From Desulforamulus ferrireducens (GTDB lineage Bacteria; Bacillota; Desulfotomaculia; Desulfotomaculales; Desulfotomaculaceae), in NCBI RefSeq assembly GCF_002005145.1, contig NZ_CP019698.1:744001-808000 (forward strand): a stretch of DNA of 64,000 nt, read 5' to 3'. The notes below the pieces were generated by a model. It was not told the DNA's origin. It made no database searches and was given only the letters and a program-made list of their open reading frames with translations. The translations under genes were made by a program, and so were the position numbers. This document shows, one piece after another, positions 50,000 through 62,797 of the stretch (position 1 is the stretch's first letter; each line of letters opens with the position of its first letter).

Positions 50000-50029
50000 T
50001 TGCCAAAGGTATCTTTTTTTGGCTATAAT
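50000..50029 (+). promoter_or_regulatory. promoter of the Moco-riboswitch transcript
   Basis: TTGCCA (50000-50005) and TATAAT (50024-50029) with an 18-base spacer, about 35 bases before the first aptamer. Confidence 0.7.
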
Positions 50030-50063
50030 GTAGATAAAATTTCGCAAGGATTTTATATTTAGA

Positions 50064-50166
50064 TTACCTCCGAGCTTGGGAACCTGTGATATTAGGTTAT
50101 GGTTCTCTAGCCGATAGGGTTCACCTGGAAACGGGTGTGCCTCCCGTGTGGAAAGGATGGTAGGTT
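50064..50166 (+). ncRNA. molybdenum-cofactor (Moco) riboswitch, aptamer 1
   Basis: The sequence carries the Moco-RNA hallmarks: ACCTCCGAGC at the 5' side, CTGGAAACGGGTG in the middle and GCCTCCCGTGTGGAAAGG at the 3' side, closed by ACCT pairing with AGGT. The 3' element is almost the same as in the E. coli moaA leader as I remember it. A terminator follows 20 bases downstream, so control is probably by transcription termination. Confidence 0.82.
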
Positions 50167-50185
50167 TATTAAACATGCCCTTTAA

Positions 50186-50208
50186 CCGCACGTTGGTGCG
50201 GTTTTTTT
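50186..50208 (+). terminator. expression-platform terminator of riboswitch 1
   Basis: CCGCAC, loop GTTG, GTGCGG and TTTTTTT, between the two aptamers. Confidence 0.88.
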
Positions 50209-50228
50209 ATACTTAAATGATATGCAAA

Positions 50229-50326
50229 GTTCTCCGAGCCATAACGCCTAAAACAATTGTCATGGTATTATGGCCGTTTAGGGTTAATCGGGAAACTGGT
50301 TAGCCTCCCCTTTGGAAAGGAGAGCA
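50229..50326 (+). ncRNA. molybdenum-cofactor (Moco) riboswitch, aptamer 2
   Basis: TCTCCGAGCC, ATCGGGAAACTGGTT, GCCTCCCCTTTGGAAAGGAGA reproduce the same conserved pattern, closed by TCTCC (50231-50235) with GGAGA (50319-50323). No terminator follows. Its GCCTCC (about 50303-50308) is complementary to GGAGGC (50393-50398) at the ribosome binding site of the next gene, so translational control is possible. Confidence 0.82.
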
Positions 50327-50404
50327 TTATGCCGCCTGTACGCAGGGTTGGTTTGTGCTGCCTTTCAATGGGCACATACTAATCATGTAGTCGGAGGCGA
50401 AGGT

Positions 50405-50656
50405 ATGACAACGGAGATGAGTGATGCTGAAGCCATCTTAACCCTGGCCTTAGTTATTACAGATATGGCTACACTGATTAATAACGATGTGGTTCGCAAA
50501 AATATAGTTATTATAGCTAACGAATTAGTTTGTCATGCTTCGGACAGGCCACTAACCAAGGATTTTTATATATCTTTGTCTAATCTGATGGCTTTACTAA
50601 AGCAGGAAAAACAAAAGTATAACAACAAAAATGCCAACACTACGCACTGCTACTAG
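50405..50656 (+). CDS. unknown 83-residue protein under tandem Moco riboswitch control
   Basis: A mainly helical 83-residue protein (DAEAILTLALVITDMATLINNDVVRKN, NELVCHASD, ISLSNLMALLKQEK), with no membrane anchor, one cysteine in the middle and one near the C-terminus. I do not recognise a family. The ATG at 50405 has GGAGG 7 bases upstream; an in-frame extension to 50312 would start inside the riboswitch and is rejected. It is the only gene before the next terminator, so it is the direct target of the two aptamers. A role in Mo/W cofactor use or metal supply is inferred only from that. Confidence 0.65.
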   Translation: MTTEMSDAEAILTLALVITDMATLINNDVVRKNIVIIANELVCHASDRPLTKDFYISLSNLMALLKQEKQKYNNKNANTTHCY

Positions 50657-50674
50657 TATGTGCGGTGTTGGCAA
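50633..50674. terminator. terminator between convergent genes
   Basis: GCCAACAC plus CGCAC pairs with GTGCG plus GTGTTGGC, giving a long stem that overlaps the end of the small gene. TTATTTTTT follows on the plus strand. Confidence 0.8.
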
Positions 50675-50693
50675 CTTATTTTTTACCAGTATT

Positions 50694-51332
50694 TTATTGG
50701 TCGGATTTTAACTGAGTTCGCGCCTGGTTAACAACCTTTTCAGGAAAGGCATGCCTAAATTGTATTTTGGCCCATTCCCAATAGGGGGTACCGGCGAGAT
50801 AAAGATCCTCAAGGATTTTTTTCATTTCTGCAAGTTCCCCTTGGTCTGTTTTATGGTCTGGCAGCTGCTGGTTAAATGAATGGGTAAGCTCCGCTGTCTC
50901 CTGCCCATTTGCCATGACCGACTGTCCCTTTTCCCACCTGGCCTCAAAATCCTTCCTAATAGCTTCCTTTTTTCTTTCTAATAACTCCGCCTGAGCCTTT
51001 AAGTGTTCTGGCAAATCCTCCTGCAAGGGCAGCCCATGCTCTACCAAATAGCTGTAATAAGAGCTTGTGGATGGTTGGTGATTAAGCTGCTCTACTAGAC
51101 TTCTGATTCTTTCCTCGGGAGATATAAACATCTCTCCCTCTCCATCCCGCAACCAAGATTCTGAGACGCCATATCTCAGACAAATGTGTTTGACTAAGGA
51201 ATCAGAAGGTTTTTTGGAAGCATTTTCAATGTTACCCACATGGCTTCTATCTATGCCCAAATCGTTTGCCATCAGAGCTTGCGTTAGGCCAAGGTTTTCT
51301 CGTAACAATTTTAATCTTTCAGAAATACTCAT
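50694..51332 (-). CDS. XRE-family transcriptional regulator
   Basis: A 212-residue regulator with an N-terminal lambda-repressor-type helix-turn-helix (residues 2-60; LRENLGLTQALMANDLGIDRSHVGNIE) and the segment SESWLRDGEGEMF, seen in many phage- and mobile-element-type XRE proteins. The C-terminal two thirds are helical and charged, with no known domain. ATG 51332 is preferred because AGAAGGA lies 6 bases upstream. Three near-identical GAAACATATTA-type repeats upstream suggest autoregulation. Confidence 0.82.
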   Translation of the reverse strand: MSISERLKLLRENLGLTQALMANDLGIDRSHVGNIENASKKPSDSLVKHICLRYGVSESWLRDGEGEMFISPEERIRSLVEQLNHQPSTSSYYSYLVEHGLPLQEDLPEHLKAQAELLERKKEAIRKDFEARWEKGQSVMANGQETAELTHSFNQQLPDHKTDQGELAEMKKILEDLYLAGTPYWEWAKIQFRHAFPEKVVNQARTQLKSDQ

Positions 51333-51346
51333 ACACATTCCTTCTC

Positions 51347-53625: not shown

Positions 53626-56600
53626 ATGCGGAAAATGACAAGGCGCGATTTTTTGAAAAGTATAAGCATTGGGACTGCCGGCTTGACTTTGGCAGCAACT
53701 CCTGCCCTAGCAGGGGAATCCCAGGGTAGAATTACCGGAGAAAAATTACCTGCCAAAATAAGAAAAGTAAAGGAAACCTATTCCATATGTTGTTTCTGTG
53801 GCTGCGGTTGTGGCCTATTGCTGTATTCAAATGAAGAGGGCCGTTTGGTCTTTTGTGAAGGTTACCCGGATCACCCTGTTAATGTCGGGACAATTTGCCC
53901 TAAAGGAAATGGCATTATTGAAGGTAATACCGTTATCAACAAAAAAAGGGGACGCGAATTTAATAAGCAACGGGTTACAAAACCTCTTTACCGTGCTCCC
54001 GGAAGTAATAAATGGGAAGAGAAAAGTTGGGACTGGGTCTTATCTGAGATTGCAAAGCGGGTTAAGAAAACTCGCGATGAGTCCTTTGAGGAAAAGGATG
54101 AGCATGGTGTAACTGTCAACAGAACAACTGCCATAGCCGGCATCGGTGCAGCAGCCCTTGATAATGAAGAAATTTACCTCTTACACAAAATGTACAGAGC
54201 GCTGGGCATGCTAAATATTGAACACTGTGCCCGCCTCTGACACTCGTCCACGGTAGCCGGTCTGGCTCCTAGTTTTGGACGCGGAATTATGACTAATCAC
54301 TTTGTGGACTACAGAAACGCCGATGTAGTTTTAATCATTGGTTCAAATACTGCCGAAAACCACCCCATGGGTATGAAATGGGTCATGAAGGCCAAGGAGA
54401 GAGGTGCCAAGCTCATTGCCGTTGACCCAAGGGTAAGTAAATCAGCCAGTATGTGCCATGTCCATGCCCGTCTGCGGCCTGGTACAGATATCGCATTTAT
54501 TAATGGCATGATTAATTATATTATTGAAAATGATCTCTGGTTTAAAGAATATGTGCTTAATTATACCAATGCCAGCTTCTTGATTCACCCGGATTATAAA
54601 TGCGAAGACGGTGTCTTCTCTGGCTTAACCCATATTGATGGTAAATTAAGCTATGATACAACTACCTGGCAATACCAAATGGACGGCGATCAAATTAAAA
54701 AAGATCCCACCTTACAAGATCCCAATTGTGTTTTTCAAATTCTTAAAAAGCATGTCAGCCGCTATGATATAAAGACTGTTTGCCAAATCACCGGAACTCC
54801 GGAAGATACTTACAGAAAGGTCTGTGAAATGTTTGCATCCAGTGGCAAACCAGATAAATCAGGCTGTGTTATCTATGGTATGGGTATTACCATGCACTCT
54901 GTGGGTACACAAAATGCCAGAGCGCTTTGTATCCTACAACTACTTCTAGGTAACATGGGTATTCCTGGCGGTGGTGTTAATCCTCAGCGTGGTGAGCAAA
55001 ACGTTCAGGGTTCCACAGACATGGCTATGTTACATGGCAATCTTCCGGGTTACCTGGGCATGGTTTACGCCAGCAAACACAAAACACTGGCAGAGTATAT
55101 AGAGAAAGAAACTCCCAAAACTGGCTATTGGTCTAATAAGCCAAAATTCTTCATTAGTCAGTTAAAGGCCTGGTATGGAGACAAGGCCACCAAAGAAAAT
55201 GATTTCTGTTTTGATTGGTTACCTAAACATGATGGTAAGAATCGTTCATTTATGAGTTTAATTGATTATATGGCCAAAGGTGAAATTAAAGGGTGCTTTA
55301 TAACAGGTCAAAACCCGGCTGTTGGAGGACCTTCTACTGTTCAAGCCAATAAGGCCTTGGAGAATCTTGATTGGTTAGTGGTATACGATATTTTCGAAAT
55401 TGAAACTGCTGCCTTCTGGAAACGGCCAGGAGCTGATCCAAGCAAGATCAAAACGGAAGTATTCCTTTTACCGGCAGCCATGTCTTTTGAAAAGGAAGGT
55501 TCGATTACTAACTCCGGCCGCTGGATGCAGTGGCGTTACAAAGCTGTTAATCCACCGGGGGAAGCAAAGTCCGATCTCTGGATTGCTTATAACCTGTTTA
55601 AAGCCATTCGCAAAGAGTATCAAAGTGGCGGTAAATTCACCGATGCAATATTCAATCTGACCTGGGATTATGACAAACCTGGTGATGAAGAACCTGATAT
55701 TGAGAAGGTAGCTGCTGAAATTAATGGTTACGAAGTTGCAACCAAAAAGGTGATACCGGGTTTTGCCAGTTTAGCTGATGATGGCTCAACTGCCTGTGGT
55801 AATTGGTGCCTAAGTGGTTACTGGTATGAAGATCCCGATGCTAAAGTACCAGCATGTAAACGTCGGATTAATAAAGACCCCTCTGGTATGGGAGTATTTC
55901 CACAATATTCCTTTGCTTGGCCGGCTAACCGTCGTATTGCTTACAACCGTTGTTCCGCTGATCCTGCCGGCAACCCGTGGAATCCCAAAAAACCTTATGC
56001 CAGATGGGATGCTGTGGCTGGTAAATGGATAATACCGGATGTACCTGACTTTAAGGCTACAGAGCCGCCAGAAGTATCAGCAAAGGATGCCTTTATTATG
56101 TCCGAGGACGGTCATGGCCGATTATTTGCGGTCAAGGGCTTAAGCGACGGTCCGTTACCGGAACACTATGAACCTTTTGAAAGTCCCTTTAAGAATCTTA
56201 TATCTAAACAACAAAACAACCCAATGGCTCTTATCTTTAAAGATGGAATGTTTAAACAACTGGCGGAAATTGGTAGTGATAAATATCCCTGCGTAGCCAT
56301 TACGATACACGTGGTAGAACACTATCAAAGTGGTGCAACCACCCGCAATTGCCCCTCCTTAGCTGAAATTTCGGCTCATATGTTTGTCAACATTTCACCT
56401 AAATTAGCTCAAAAAATTGGGGTTAAAAATGGTGATGATGTTATTGTGGAATCTGTTCGAGGTCAAATAACCTGTAAAGCTGCTGTTAACGGGGTCTGCG
56501 TGCCGCTCATCGTTAACGGTAAAGAAATAGAAGTGATCTCTATGCCTTATTCCTGGGGCTTTATGGGTTTAACCACAGGAGCTTCAGCCAATGATTTGAC

Positions 56601-56676
56601 TCCATTCGTAGGTGATCCGAACAGTAATATTCCTGAATACAAAGCATTTCTTTGCAATGTAAGAAAGGCAAACTAG
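53626..56676 (+). CDS. fdnG: selenocysteine-containing formate dehydrogenase alpha subunit (Tat-exported)
   Basis: One gene of 1016 residues with an in-frame TGA at 54238-54240 (residue 205) read as selenocysteine, which ligates Mo or W in the bis-MGD site. It has a Tat signal (TRRDFLKSISIGTAG), the N-terminal [4Fe-4S] motif CCFCGCGCG with CPKG, then EHCARL-Sec-HSSTVAGL and FGRGIMTNHFVDYRNADV. The TGA is followed at FDH-like spacing by a SECIS hairpin. Molybdopterin domains include ERGAKLIAVDPRVSK, GNMGIPGGGVNPQRGEQNVQG and the C-terminal NGDDVIVESVRGQ. It oxidises formate on the outer side of the membrane with the two following subunits. Confidence 0.96.
54241..54280 (+). promoter_or_regulatory. 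bacterial SECIS element
   Basis: Stem AGCC (54255-54258)/GGCT (54264-54267) with apical loop GGTCT, and an outer GTCCA (54246-54250)/TGGAC (54276-54280) helix. The loop begins 18 bases after the TGA, the same spacing as in the E. coli fdhF SECIS, which also has a GGUCU loop. Confidence 0.88.
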
Positions 56677-59718: not shown

Positions 59719-59970
59719 GTTTAATATGCGTATCGCCATGGAACGGGAAAAGTAGACTGGTGGGAGTCTGTACAGAGAGTCCGGTATTTGGTGCAAGCCG
59801 GGCCAGCACCATCTGTTGAAGATCACCCGGGAGGTGCCAGCTGAAACCTTGGGGAGTAAGTATGGCCGTTAACACCACGTTATAGGTGTATCGAGTGTTC
59901 AGACATGTTGTCTGTTCATGAGGGTGGTACCACGGGTTATTGGCTCGTCCCTTTCGGGACGAGCTTTTTT
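59719..59970 (+). ncRNA. T-box riboswitch, isoleucine specificity
   Basis: A complete T-box leader: AGTA-type bulge (AAAAGTAGAC about 59749), CAGAGAGTC (about 59773), GGTGCAAGCCGGG apical loop (about 59790), specifier region TTGAAGATCACC with ATC (59822-59824) as isoleucine codon, the T-box AGGGTGGTACCACGG (59921-59935) and the terminator hairpin at 59943-59970. It lets uncharged tRNA-Ile promote read-through into ileS. Confidence 0.93.
59943..59970 (+). terminator. T-box terminator
   Basis: GCTCGTCCC, TTTC loop, GGGACGAGC, followed by TTTTTT. Confidence 0.92.
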
Positions 59971-60004
59971 AAGTTTACAAACCAAAAGGTCAGGAGTGAA
60001 GGAT

Positions 60005-62797
60005 GTGGATTACAGTAAAACCTTAAATTTGCCCCAAACCGACTTCCCTATGCGGGGCAACCTACCCCAAAGGGAACCGGAAATTTTAAAACGCTGGCAA
60101 GAGATCGATCTGTACAATAAAGTTCAGGAGAAAAATCAAGGCAAGCCCAAGTATATTCTGCACGACGGGCCGCCCTATGCCAATGGACATATTCACCTGG
60201 GACATACACTCAACAAAGTATTAAAGGACATGATCGTTAAATACCGTACCATGAGCGGTTACGATTCTCCTTATATTCCGGGTTGGGATACCCACGGCTT
60301 ACCCATTGAACAACAAGCCATCAAACAATTAGGTATAAACCGTCACCAGATTGATCCGGTGGAATTCCGTAAAAAATGTAAGGATTATGCTTTGGAATTT
60401 GTCAACATTCAAAGGGAAGAGTTTCAGCGTTTAGGCGTACGAGGAGACTGGGAGCGTCCCTATCTGACCTTGCTTCCCCAGTACGAAGCTACCCAGATTC
60501 GTGTGTTTGGTGAAATGGCCAAGAAAGGCTATATCTATAAAGGGATGAAACCGGTTTACTGGTGTGCCAGTTGTGAAACTGCCCTGGCCGAGGCGGAAGT
60601 GGAGTATGCCGATAAAACCTCTCCTTCCATTTATGTGAAATTTCCTGTGAAAGACGGTAAAGGCCTGTTGCCCGCAGATGCAGCGGTGGTTATCTGGACC
60701 ACCACTCCCTGGACCTTACCCGCCAACGTGGCCATTAGCTTACACCCAGAATTTGACTATGTGTTAGCACTGGTAAAAGGGCAGAAGGTACTGGTGGCCA
60801 AAGAGCTGCTGGAGGCCTTTAAGAAGGCTGTGGAAACAGAGGAAGCAGAGATTCTGGCTACCTATAAGGGAGAACAACTGGAAGGAGTGGTCTGCCACCA
60901 TCCCTTTGTGGAACGTGATTCCCTGGTTATCCTGGGCGATCATGTTACTTTGGAGGCTGGTACCGGTGCTGTACACACCGCTCCGGGACATGGTGAAGAA
61001 GACTTTTTAGTGGGTAAAAAATACAACCTGCCGGTACTGGCACCCGTAGACAACAAAGGTAAATTTACTGCCGAAGGAGGTAAATTTGCCGGCCAGTTTA
61101 TTCTCGATGCTAACAAAACCATTGTGGAGGAATTAAAGGAACGGGAAGCTCTGCTGGGACACAGCCACATCAAACACCAGTATCCCCACTGCTGGCGCTG
61201 TAAACAGCCCATCTTCTTCCGGGCTACCGAGCAATGGTTTGCTTCGGTGGAAGGCTTTCGTCAGGAGGCCCTTAAGGCCATCCGCAGCGTGAAGTGGGTA
61301 CCGGAATGGGGCGAAAACCGGATTTACAACATGGTGGAGGGGCGCGGCGATTGGTGTATCTCCCGTCAACGGACCTGGGGTGTGCCCATTCCCATTTTCT
61401 ACTGCAATGACTGTGGTAAAGAAATTATTAACGAAGAAACCATTGCCCATATCCAAGGCTTGTTTAAGGAGCATGGTTCTGATATTTGGTTTGCTAAAGA
61501 AGCTAATGAATTGGTACCCCCTGGCCTTACCTGCCCCCACTGCGGCAAAGGCAAGGACTTCCGGAAAGAAACCGATATTATGGATGTCTGGTTTGATTCT
61601 GGCTCCAGCCATTTGGCGGTACTGGAACAACCGGAATTGTGGCCTGAATTACAGTGGCCGGCAGACCTTTATTTGGAGGGCAGCGACCAGCACCGTGGCT
61701 GGTTTAACTCCTCCTTATCCACCTCGGTGGCTGTTACCGGCAAACCGCCCTACAAGGCTGTGCTGACCCATGGTTTCCTGGTGGATGAAAAGGGACGTAA
61801 AATGTCCAAATCCTTGGGTAACGTAGTAGATCCGCTCAAGGTTATTAACCAAATGGGTGCAGATATTCTAAGGCTATGGGTTTCTTCTGCCGACTATCGT
61901 AGTGATTTATCGGTCTCCCCTAATATCATTAAGCAAATGACCGAGTCCTACCGTAAAATCAGAAATACCGCCCGCTTCCTATTGGGCAATCTTTATGATT
62001 TTGATCCCTCTAAAGATAAGGTTGCCTATGAAAAATTACCCGAACTGGATCGGGTAGCCCTAATGGAGCTGCATAAGCTAATTAAGCGGGTACTAAAAGC
62101 TTACGAGAACTATGAATTCCATGTGGTTTACCATGCTATACACAATTTCTGCGTGGTGGATCTCAGTGCCTTCTATCTGGATATTATTAAGGATCGTCTC
62201 TATACCGCTCCTCCGGCTTCTCTGGAACGTCGGGCTGCTCAGACCGTGATTTACGAAGCACTGGATGCCTTAGTAAGACTGTTGACTCCGGTACTGGCCT
62301 TTACCACCGAGGAAATCTACAGCCATATGCCTGTGGTGGGTGAGAGATTAGCCAGTGTGCAATTGCTGGATATGCCCGAGGTAAACGAATCCTATATTGA
62401 TTTGGATTTGGAGAAAAAGTGGGATAAAATTCAAGAGATCCGCAAAGAAGTACTGAGATCTTTGGAAATGGCCCGTCAGAGCAAAGTTATTGGTAACTCC
62501 TTGGAAGCCAAGGTAGAACTTTTTGTAGATGGTGAAGTGGCTGCCCTCTTGCAACCAATGTCAGAGGAACTAACCACCCTGTTTATTGTTTCCCAGGTTA
62601 GCCTGCAACCTCTCAAAGAGGCACCTGCTGAGGCGACCAAGGCAGAGGAGTTGCCATTGGCTGTCCTGGTGGCACCGGCCACAGGCGGCAAATGCGAGCG
62701 CTGCTGGATGTACCACGAGGCAGTGGGGCAAGATGCCGAACACACCACCCTATGCCCCCGCTGTGCCGGTGTGGTAAAGGAGCACCATAACGTATAA
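60005..62797 (+). CDS. ileS: isoleucine--tRNA ligase
   Basis: IleRS charges tRNA-Ile. The 930-residue class Ia synthetase has HDGPPYANGHIHLGH (HIGH motif), the editing domain (WTTTPWTLPANVAI, GTGAVHTAPGHGEEDF), GRKMSKSLGN (KMSKS) and a C-terminal zinc finger CERCW...CPRC near residue 905. GTG 60005 with AGGAG 8 bases upstream is the start; the frame extends to 59918 but that part is the T-box. In B. subtilis it follows divIVA. Confidence 0.97.
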   Translation: MDYSKTLNLPQTDFPMRGNLPQREPEILKRWQEIDLYNKVQEKNQGKPKYILHDGPPYANGHIHLGHTLNKVLKDMIVKYRTMSGYDSPYIPGWDTHGLPIEQQAIKQLGINRHQIDPVEFRKKCKDYALEFVNIQREEFQRLGVRGDWERPYLTLLPQYEATQIRVFGEMAKKGYIYKGMKPVYWCASCETALAEAEVEYADKTSPSIYVKFPVKDGKGLLPADAAVVIWTTTPWTLPANVAISLHPEFDYVLALVKGQKVLVAKELLEAFKKAVETEEAEILATYKGEQLEGVVCHHPFVERDSLVILGDHVTLEAGTGAVHTAPGHGEEDFLVGKKYNLPVLAPVDNKGKFTAEGGKFAGQFILDANKTIVEELKEREALLGHSHIKHQYPHCWRCKQPIFFRATEQWFASVEGFRQEALKAIRSVKWVPEWGENRIYNMVEGRGDWCISRQRTWGVPIPIFYCNDCGKEIINEETIAHIQGLFKEHGSDIWFAKEANELVPPGLTCPHCGKGKDFRKETDIMDVWFDSGSSHLAVLEQPELWPELQWPADLYLEGSDQHRGWFNSSLSTSVAVTGKPPYKAVLTHGFLVDEKGRKMSKSLGNVVDPLKVINQMGADILRLWVSSADYRSDLSVSPNIIKQMTESYRKIRNTARFLLGNLYDFDPSKDKVAYEKLPELDRVALMELHKLIKRVLKAYENYEFHVVYHAIHNFCVVDLSAFYLDIIKDRLYTAPPASLERRAAQTVIYEALDALVRLLTPVLAFTTEEIYSHMPVVGERLASVQLLDMPEVNESYIDLDLEKKWDKIQEIRKEVLRSLEMARQSKVIGNSLEAKVELFVDGEVAALLQPMSEELTTLFIVSQVSLQPLKEAPAEATKAEELPLAVLVAPATGGKCERCWMYHEAVGQDAEHTTLCPRCAGVVKEHHNV

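What the first reader, a model, noticed from the sequence alone, without database searches (positions are those of the whole stretch)
50064..50326. Two tandem molybdenum-cofactor riboswitches with different apparent expression platforms
Both aptamers carry the conserved CTCCGAGC, GGAAAC and GCCTCCC..GGAAAGG blocks. The first is followed by a strong terminator, the second by none, but it has an anti-Shine-Dalgarno match to the downstream gene. Tandem Moco RNAs on one transcript would give two-level control, or sense two ligands (Mo versus W cofactor). Mo/W genes moeA, mobB and a formate dehydrogenase lie just downstream.
Basis: partly seen in the sequence, partly recalled or inferred. Interest (0 to 1): 0.75.

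Follow-up and report, generated by a model that had tools for sequence, protein, structure and literature searches.

The report
Tandem tungsten-cofactor riboswitches before small gene
Two RNA sensors of the molybdenum/tungsten cofactor family, both of the kind thought to sense tungsten cofactor, sit one after the other in front of an uncharacterised 83-residue protein gene in a Desulforamulus-type sulfate reducer; such tandems were already known, but the gene they control and the species-specific loss of the second terminator are new details.

Summary
Rfam RF01055 matches at 50056-50174 (73.6 bits) and 50220-50338 (79.4 bits; cut-off 36). The two-ligand idea is not supported: both aptamers lack the P3 stem, as do the other seven in this genome, and P3-lacking aptamers are the proposed tungsten-cofactor type. 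The tandem probably does not read into moeA/mobB/fdh. It lies before an 83-aa ORF (50405-50656), then a strong hairpin and a convergent HTH gene. That ORF is found in only 5 of 113 genomes of the class, always behind RF01055 aptamers (tandem in four, single in one) and beside the same moeA-fdh cassette. The platforms do differ, but this is a derived state: in all four relatives the second (or only) aptamer has a terminator; in the window a deletion removed its U-run and brought the hairpin next to the ribosome-binding site. Folding suggests this hairpin can sequester SD and start codon, so the second switch may now act on translation (inferred). The two aptamers come from two lineages, each closer to its counterpart in a second tandem of this genome. 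Tandem Moco/Wco riboswitches are published (2008, 2022). New member of a known kind; moderate-low interest.

The parts
50000..50029 (+). likely sigma-A promoter TTGCCA-18-TATAAT
   Evidence: 11 of 12 consensus matches; a TTGC..ATAAT pattern with a T-run before the -10 is conserved upstream of the homologous tandem in three other genomes
50056..50174 (+). Moco/Wco riboswitch aptamer 1, P3-lacking
   Evidence: RF01055 73.6 bits; 84% identical over aptamer plus 40 nt to aptamer 1 of the other tandem in this genome
50145..50156 (+). aptamer-1 segment CGTGTGGAAAGG, proposed antiterminator strand
   Evidence: read by eye as pairing with 50178-50192; best duplex of the longer segment 50136-50166 with 50167-50210 is -23.5 kcal/mol versus -15.8 +/- 3.1 in shuffles, 14 of 1000 as good
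50178..50192 (+). CCCTTTAACCGCACG, containing the 5' arm of terminator 1; partner of the antiterminator strand
50184..50208 (+). intrinsic terminator 1
   Evidence: conserved in G001, G007, G008
50220..50338 (+). Moco/Wco riboswitch aptamer 2, P3-lacking
   Evidence: RF01055 79.4 bits
50308..50320 (+). aptamer-2 segment CCCTTTGGAAAGG, proposed anti-sequestor strand
   Evidence: can pair with 50361-50372; z -2.39, p 0.03, but not significant with other boundaries (211 of 1000)
50327..50408 (+). long hairpin derived from terminator 2, now lacking a U-run and enclosing SD and start codon
   Evidence: MFE of 50325-50412 -31.0 kcal/mol, shuffles -23.1 +/- 3.0, 11 of 1000 as low; relatives have a terminator here
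50393..50398 (+). Shine-Dalgarno GGAGGC, seven bases between GGAGG and ATG
   Evidence: invariant GGAGGCGA in five genomes
50405..50656 (+). 83-aa ORF of unknown function, predicted three-helix protein
   Evidence: homologs in 4 other genomes, dN well below dS where dS could be computed; no Pfam or credible NCBIfam match; model pLDDT 83
50632..50683 (+). hairpin between the small ORF and the convergent HTH gene, then TTATTTTTT; probable end of the transcript
   Evidence: fold; strong hairpins at the same place in G001, G007, G008
50694..51338 (-). XRE-type HTH regulator gene, convergent; separates the small ORF from moeA
   Evidence: same arrangement in all five genomes

Best explanation
A pair of OFF riboswitches of the Moco/Wco family, both of the P3-lacking type proposed to sense tungsten cofactor, acts in series on one transcript that encodes a single small protein. 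When cofactor is scarce, the 3' part of each aptamer (the segment ending in GGAAAGG) pairs with the 5' arm or loop of the hairpin that follows, so hairpin 1 does not terminate and hairpin 2 does not close over the ribosome-binding site; the small protein is made. When cofactor is plentiful, each aptamer folds: the first terminates transcription, and transcripts that escape are held back by the second hairpin, which in this species has lost its U-run and encloses SD and start codon, hence would work on translation instead. Shown by sequence: two aptamers, terminator 1, absence of terminator 2 in contrast to four homologous loci, conserved link to the small ORF. Inferred: ligand identity, direction of switching, translational action of the second hairpin, and that the small protein serves when tungsten cofactor is short.
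For: Rfam scores and missing P3 in both aptamers; all nine aptamers of this genome lack P3 by inspection, and three aldehyde:ferredoxin-oxidoreductase-type genes and two TupA-like genes, each behind an aptamer, point to tungsten use. Terminator 1 and its competing pairing. Over 54 aptamers of the genus and one outgroup genome, the aptamer 3' segment pairs with its own platform better than with shuffles (mean z -1.25; 19 of 54 at p <= 0.05, 2.7 expected). Homologous small-ORF loci in four other genomes have RF01055 aptamers and a terminator after the second or only one. Post-aptamer fold z -2.6 with SD and AUG mostly paired.
Against: No ligand or expression data. SD and start sequestration is only marginally beyond chance (47 of 500), and the anti-sequestor pairing of aptamer 2 is significant with one choice of boundaries but not another. 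With the antihairpin enforced, most SD bases open but AUG stays paired in the predicted fold. P3 absence as a mark of tungsten cofactor is a correlation, not a binding result (PMC2408646).
Confidence: 0.6

Rival explanations
1. Only the first riboswitch still regulates. The deletion that removed the U-run of terminator 2 made the second copy a decaying, non-regulating leftover.
For: Among the five homologous loci the U-run is gone only in the window's copy; low-scoring, apparently decaying aptamers exist in relatives (G008:C24:20887, 41 bits); sequestration statistics are modest.
Against: Aptamer 2 is the higher-scoring of the pair (79.4 bits), the stem of the old terminator is kept in the fold with G-U pairs, and its loop still matches the aptamer segment (p 0.03).
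Confidence: 0.25
2. The two aptamers sense different cofactors (Mo versus W), a logic gate.
For: The two aptamers belong to different lineages (70% identity to each other, 80-84% to counterparts of the other tandem).
Against: Both lack P3, the feature reported to separate the two classes; no aptamer in this genome shows P3.
Confidence: 0.07
3. The tandem controls moeA, mobB and formate dehydrogenase by read-through past the small ORF.
For: These genes begin about 1.1 kb downstream of the small ORF and moeA and formate dehydrogenase keep their place in all five genomes.
Against: A strong hairpin follows the small ORF, and a convergent gene lies in the gap to moeA.
Confidence: 0.08

Closest known systems
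Tandem and triple Moco RNAs of Syntrophomonas wolfei and Geobacter metallireducens (Regulski et al. 2008, PMC2408646)
   Same: Several RF01055 aptamers in series; in the S. wolfei triple all lack P3 and the first two are followed by putative terminators
   Different: Different genes: the S. wolfei triple precedes a seven-gene operon (MPT synthesis, transport, unknown genes), here a single small ORF; here the second hairpin lost its U-run relative to four homologous loci
Tandem Moco and Wco riboswitches catalogued by Sherlock et al. 2022 (PMC9481103)
   Same: Pseudo-cooperative arrangement with multiple expression platforms; Wco tandems before genes not of cofactor synthesis
   Different: The small-ORF target is not mentioned in the passages read; one terminator plus a possible translational platform within one class
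Second tandem of the same genome (G000 548065-548346)
   Same: Both aptamers and both platforms resemble the window's pair (84% and 80% identity)
   Different: Its second terminator is intact and the genes downstream are a 184-aa ORF and an L-glutamate gamma-semialdehyde dehydrogenase

Membership tests
Molybdenum/tungsten cofactor riboswitch (Rfam RF01055) | covariance score above the gathering cut-off | tested here: met
   73.6 and 79.4 bits, cut-off 36
Molybdenum/tungsten cofactor riboswitch (Rfam RF01055) | GAAA tetraloop in P4 and conserved CCGAGC, GCCUCCC, GGAAAGG | tested here: met
Molybdenum/tungsten cofactor riboswitch (Rfam RF01055) | binds the cofactor and changes expression | not testable with these tools
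   no ligand or expression data
Tungsten-cofactor (P3-lacking) subclass | P3 stem absent | tested here: met
   P3 deleted in both alignments
Tungsten-cofactor (P3-lacking) subclass | genome has tungsten-use genes | tested here: met
   three AFOR_C genes; two TupA-like proteins, best matches to TupA but below the curated cut-off of 400 bits (174.6 and 251.6)
Tandem (pseudo-cooperative) riboswitch | two aptamers of one class on one transcript | tested here: met
   45 nt between the two matches, promoter-like site upstream; transcription start not mapped
Tandem (pseudo-cooperative) riboswitch | each aptamer has its own working expression platform | tested here: inconclusive
   terminator 1 clear; platform 2 lacks a U-run, sequestration only modestly supported

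The most novel reading that the evidence does not exclude
The second riboswitch was converted by one deletion from a transcriptional to a translational switch, giving two-layer tungsten-cofactor control of a lineage-specific small protein that works in tungsten-cofactor shortage.
Probability: 0.3. Interest if true: 0.55.

Novelty: new member of a known kind. Interest (0 to 1): 0.35.

Why it matters
The five homologous loci give a natural before-and-after set for how an expression platform changes by deletion, and they tie an unknown small protein to tungsten-cofactor status, which gives a first testable handle on its function. The tandem arrangement itself is not new.

Tried and rejected
Mo versus W two-ligand gate: disfavoured because both aptamers lack P3. 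Control of moeA/mobB/fdh: disfavoured by the hairpin and convergent gene between. Function of the small protein by family or fold: no Pfam family, only a weak NCBIfam match (16 bits, cut-off 725), no PHROG better than E 0.12, no PDB sequence match better than E 0.023, no PDB fold match with E <= 0.001 (best 1.1), none on plasmids. A phylum hit in G285 lies within a 431-aa transporter-like frame (looks like a uracil/xanthine permease) and was discarded. Named records: the protein scan of genome contigs found nothing; a DNA pattern scan gave Desulforamulus aeronauticus DSM 10349 and an uncultured Desulfotomaculum MAG, which I equate with G001 and G008 because contig lengths agree. The organism of the window itself is not named by any tool; 'Desulforamulus-type' rests on that kinship. 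Local duplication as origin of the pair: not favoured, since each aptamer is closer to its counterpart elsewhere, though tree support is moderate at best and low for some groups. IQ-TREE stopped on a thread setting; FastTree was used.

Full report
Observation. cmscan with Rfam 15 finds two RF01055 matches on the + strand, 50056-50174 (73.6 bits) and 50220-50338 (79.4 bits), gathering score 36. A promoter-like site TTGCCA-18-TATAAT (50000-50029) precedes them. The first is followed by a terminator (50184-50208), the second is not.

Class. In both alignments the P3 hairpin of the Rfam consensus is missing. Regulski et al. 2008 report that 17 of 19 organisms with P3-lacking Moco RNAs carry genes indicative of tungsten-cofactor metabolism, and note tandem and triple arrangements, the triple with terminators (PMC2408646). 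Sherlock et al. 2022 list thirteen doublets and two triplets for Moco and also tandem Wco riboswitches (PMC9481103). The window's genome holds nine RF01055 matches, all P3-lacking by inspection, two of them (533709, 1813245) ahead of TupA-like genes (best matches to TupA but below the curated cut-off), and three AFOR_C genes. So both aptamers belong to one class and a Mo/W two-input gate is unlikely.

What is controlled. The next gene is an 83-aa ORF (50405-50656) with SD GGAGGC. It is followed by a strong hairpin and a convergent XRE-type gene; moeA, mobB and a selenocysteine formate dehydrogenase come after. The ORF has relatives in G007, G001 and G008 of the same genus and in G051 of another family of the order, and in no other of 113 class genomes; a draw of 398 phylum genomes added one hit, judged false. 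In the nine of ten genome pairs for which dS could be computed, dN is well below dS; the pair G000-G007 gave no dS. This supports a real gene. All five loci share the order riboswitch - small ORF - HTH (convergent) - moeA - formate dehydrogenase. Four have the tandem; G051 has a single aptamer of the second type.

Platforms. In G007, G001, G008 and G051 the second (or only) aptamer is followed by a hairpin with a U-rich tail (6-7 T in 9). In the window the same hairpin has 3 T in 9, and the distance from GGAAAGGAG to ATG is 91 nt against 112-161 nt. With an outgroup and three congeners carrying the terminator, the simplest reading is one deletion in the window's lineage; no species tree was built. 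The result folds into a long hairpin (50327-50408) covering SD and start codon; the segment 50325-50412 has -31.0 kcal/mol, 11 of 1000 shuffles as low. SD plus AUG are unpaired 0.17 on average against 0.40 in shuffles, 47 of 500 as low. In some relatives part of the SD is also predicted paired, so SD pairing is not unique to the window. This is suggestive, not proof.

Switching. In aptamer 1, CGTGTGGAAAGG can pair with CCCTTTAACCGCACG of the terminator; the best duplex of the surrounding segments beats all but 14 of 1000 shuffles. Across 54 aptamers the same segment pairs with its own platform more strongly than with shuffles (mean z -1.25, 19 at p <= 0.05). The aptamers are related, so these are not 54 independent tests. 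The pattern fits cofactor-OFF control.

Origin. A FastTree of 55 aptamers places the first aptamers of the small-ORF and aldehyde-dehydrogenase tandems in one clade with the single one at 638595 (near an [FeFe]-hydrogenase gene) and thirteen others (support 0.77), and the second ones in another clade with the singles of G051 and eight others (support 0.86). Identity over aptamer plus 40 nt is 84% and 80% between like positions of the two tandems of this genome, 70% within the window's pair. So the pair was probably not made by local duplication; single-gene alignments of about 115 nt cannot settle it.

The small protein. AlphaFold2 gives three helices (pLDDT 83, three sequences in the alignment), with no significant PDB match by fold or sequence. 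Its function is open; being under proposed cofactor-OFF control beside a formate dehydrogenase cassette suggests a role in tungsten-cofactor shortage (inference).

Verdict. A sound, conserved instance of a known arrangement, with two details that I did not find in the papers read: an orphan small gene as target and loss of the second terminator.

Noticed in passing
59730-59955 (+): T-box leader, 120 bits, directly before a large aminoacyl-tRNA synthetase ORF (59918-62797, looks like isoleucyl); ordinary.
   Followed up: no
53626-56676 (+), TGA at codon 205: Formate dehydrogenase alpha gene with an in-frame TGA in EHCARLUHSS, a selenocysteine-type site; a hairpin follows but is not beyond shuffles (z -0.7).
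   Followed up: partly
G000 whole genome: 533709, 534046, 534569, 548065, 548229, 638595, 794056, 794220, 1813245: Nine P3-lacking RF01055 matches in one 3.24 Mb genome; other genomes of the order reach 27.
   Followed up: partly
L069 (G051:C5) 168663-168780 and 168830-168950: Two aptamers in tandem with CCGATT in place of CCGAGC and GGAC in place of GGCC, a variant that may keep pairing by paired changes.
   Followed up: no
G008:C24:20887-21006; G005:C23:372686-372807 and 370162-370291: Low-scoring, apparently decaying or divergent aptamers (41-51 bits).
   Followed up: no
G007:C1:554046-554165 and downstream: The second aptamer of the aldehyde-dehydrogenase tandem in G007 has a hairpin with a weak U-run (CTGTTGATT), so weakening of the last terminator may have happened more than once.
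   Followed up: no
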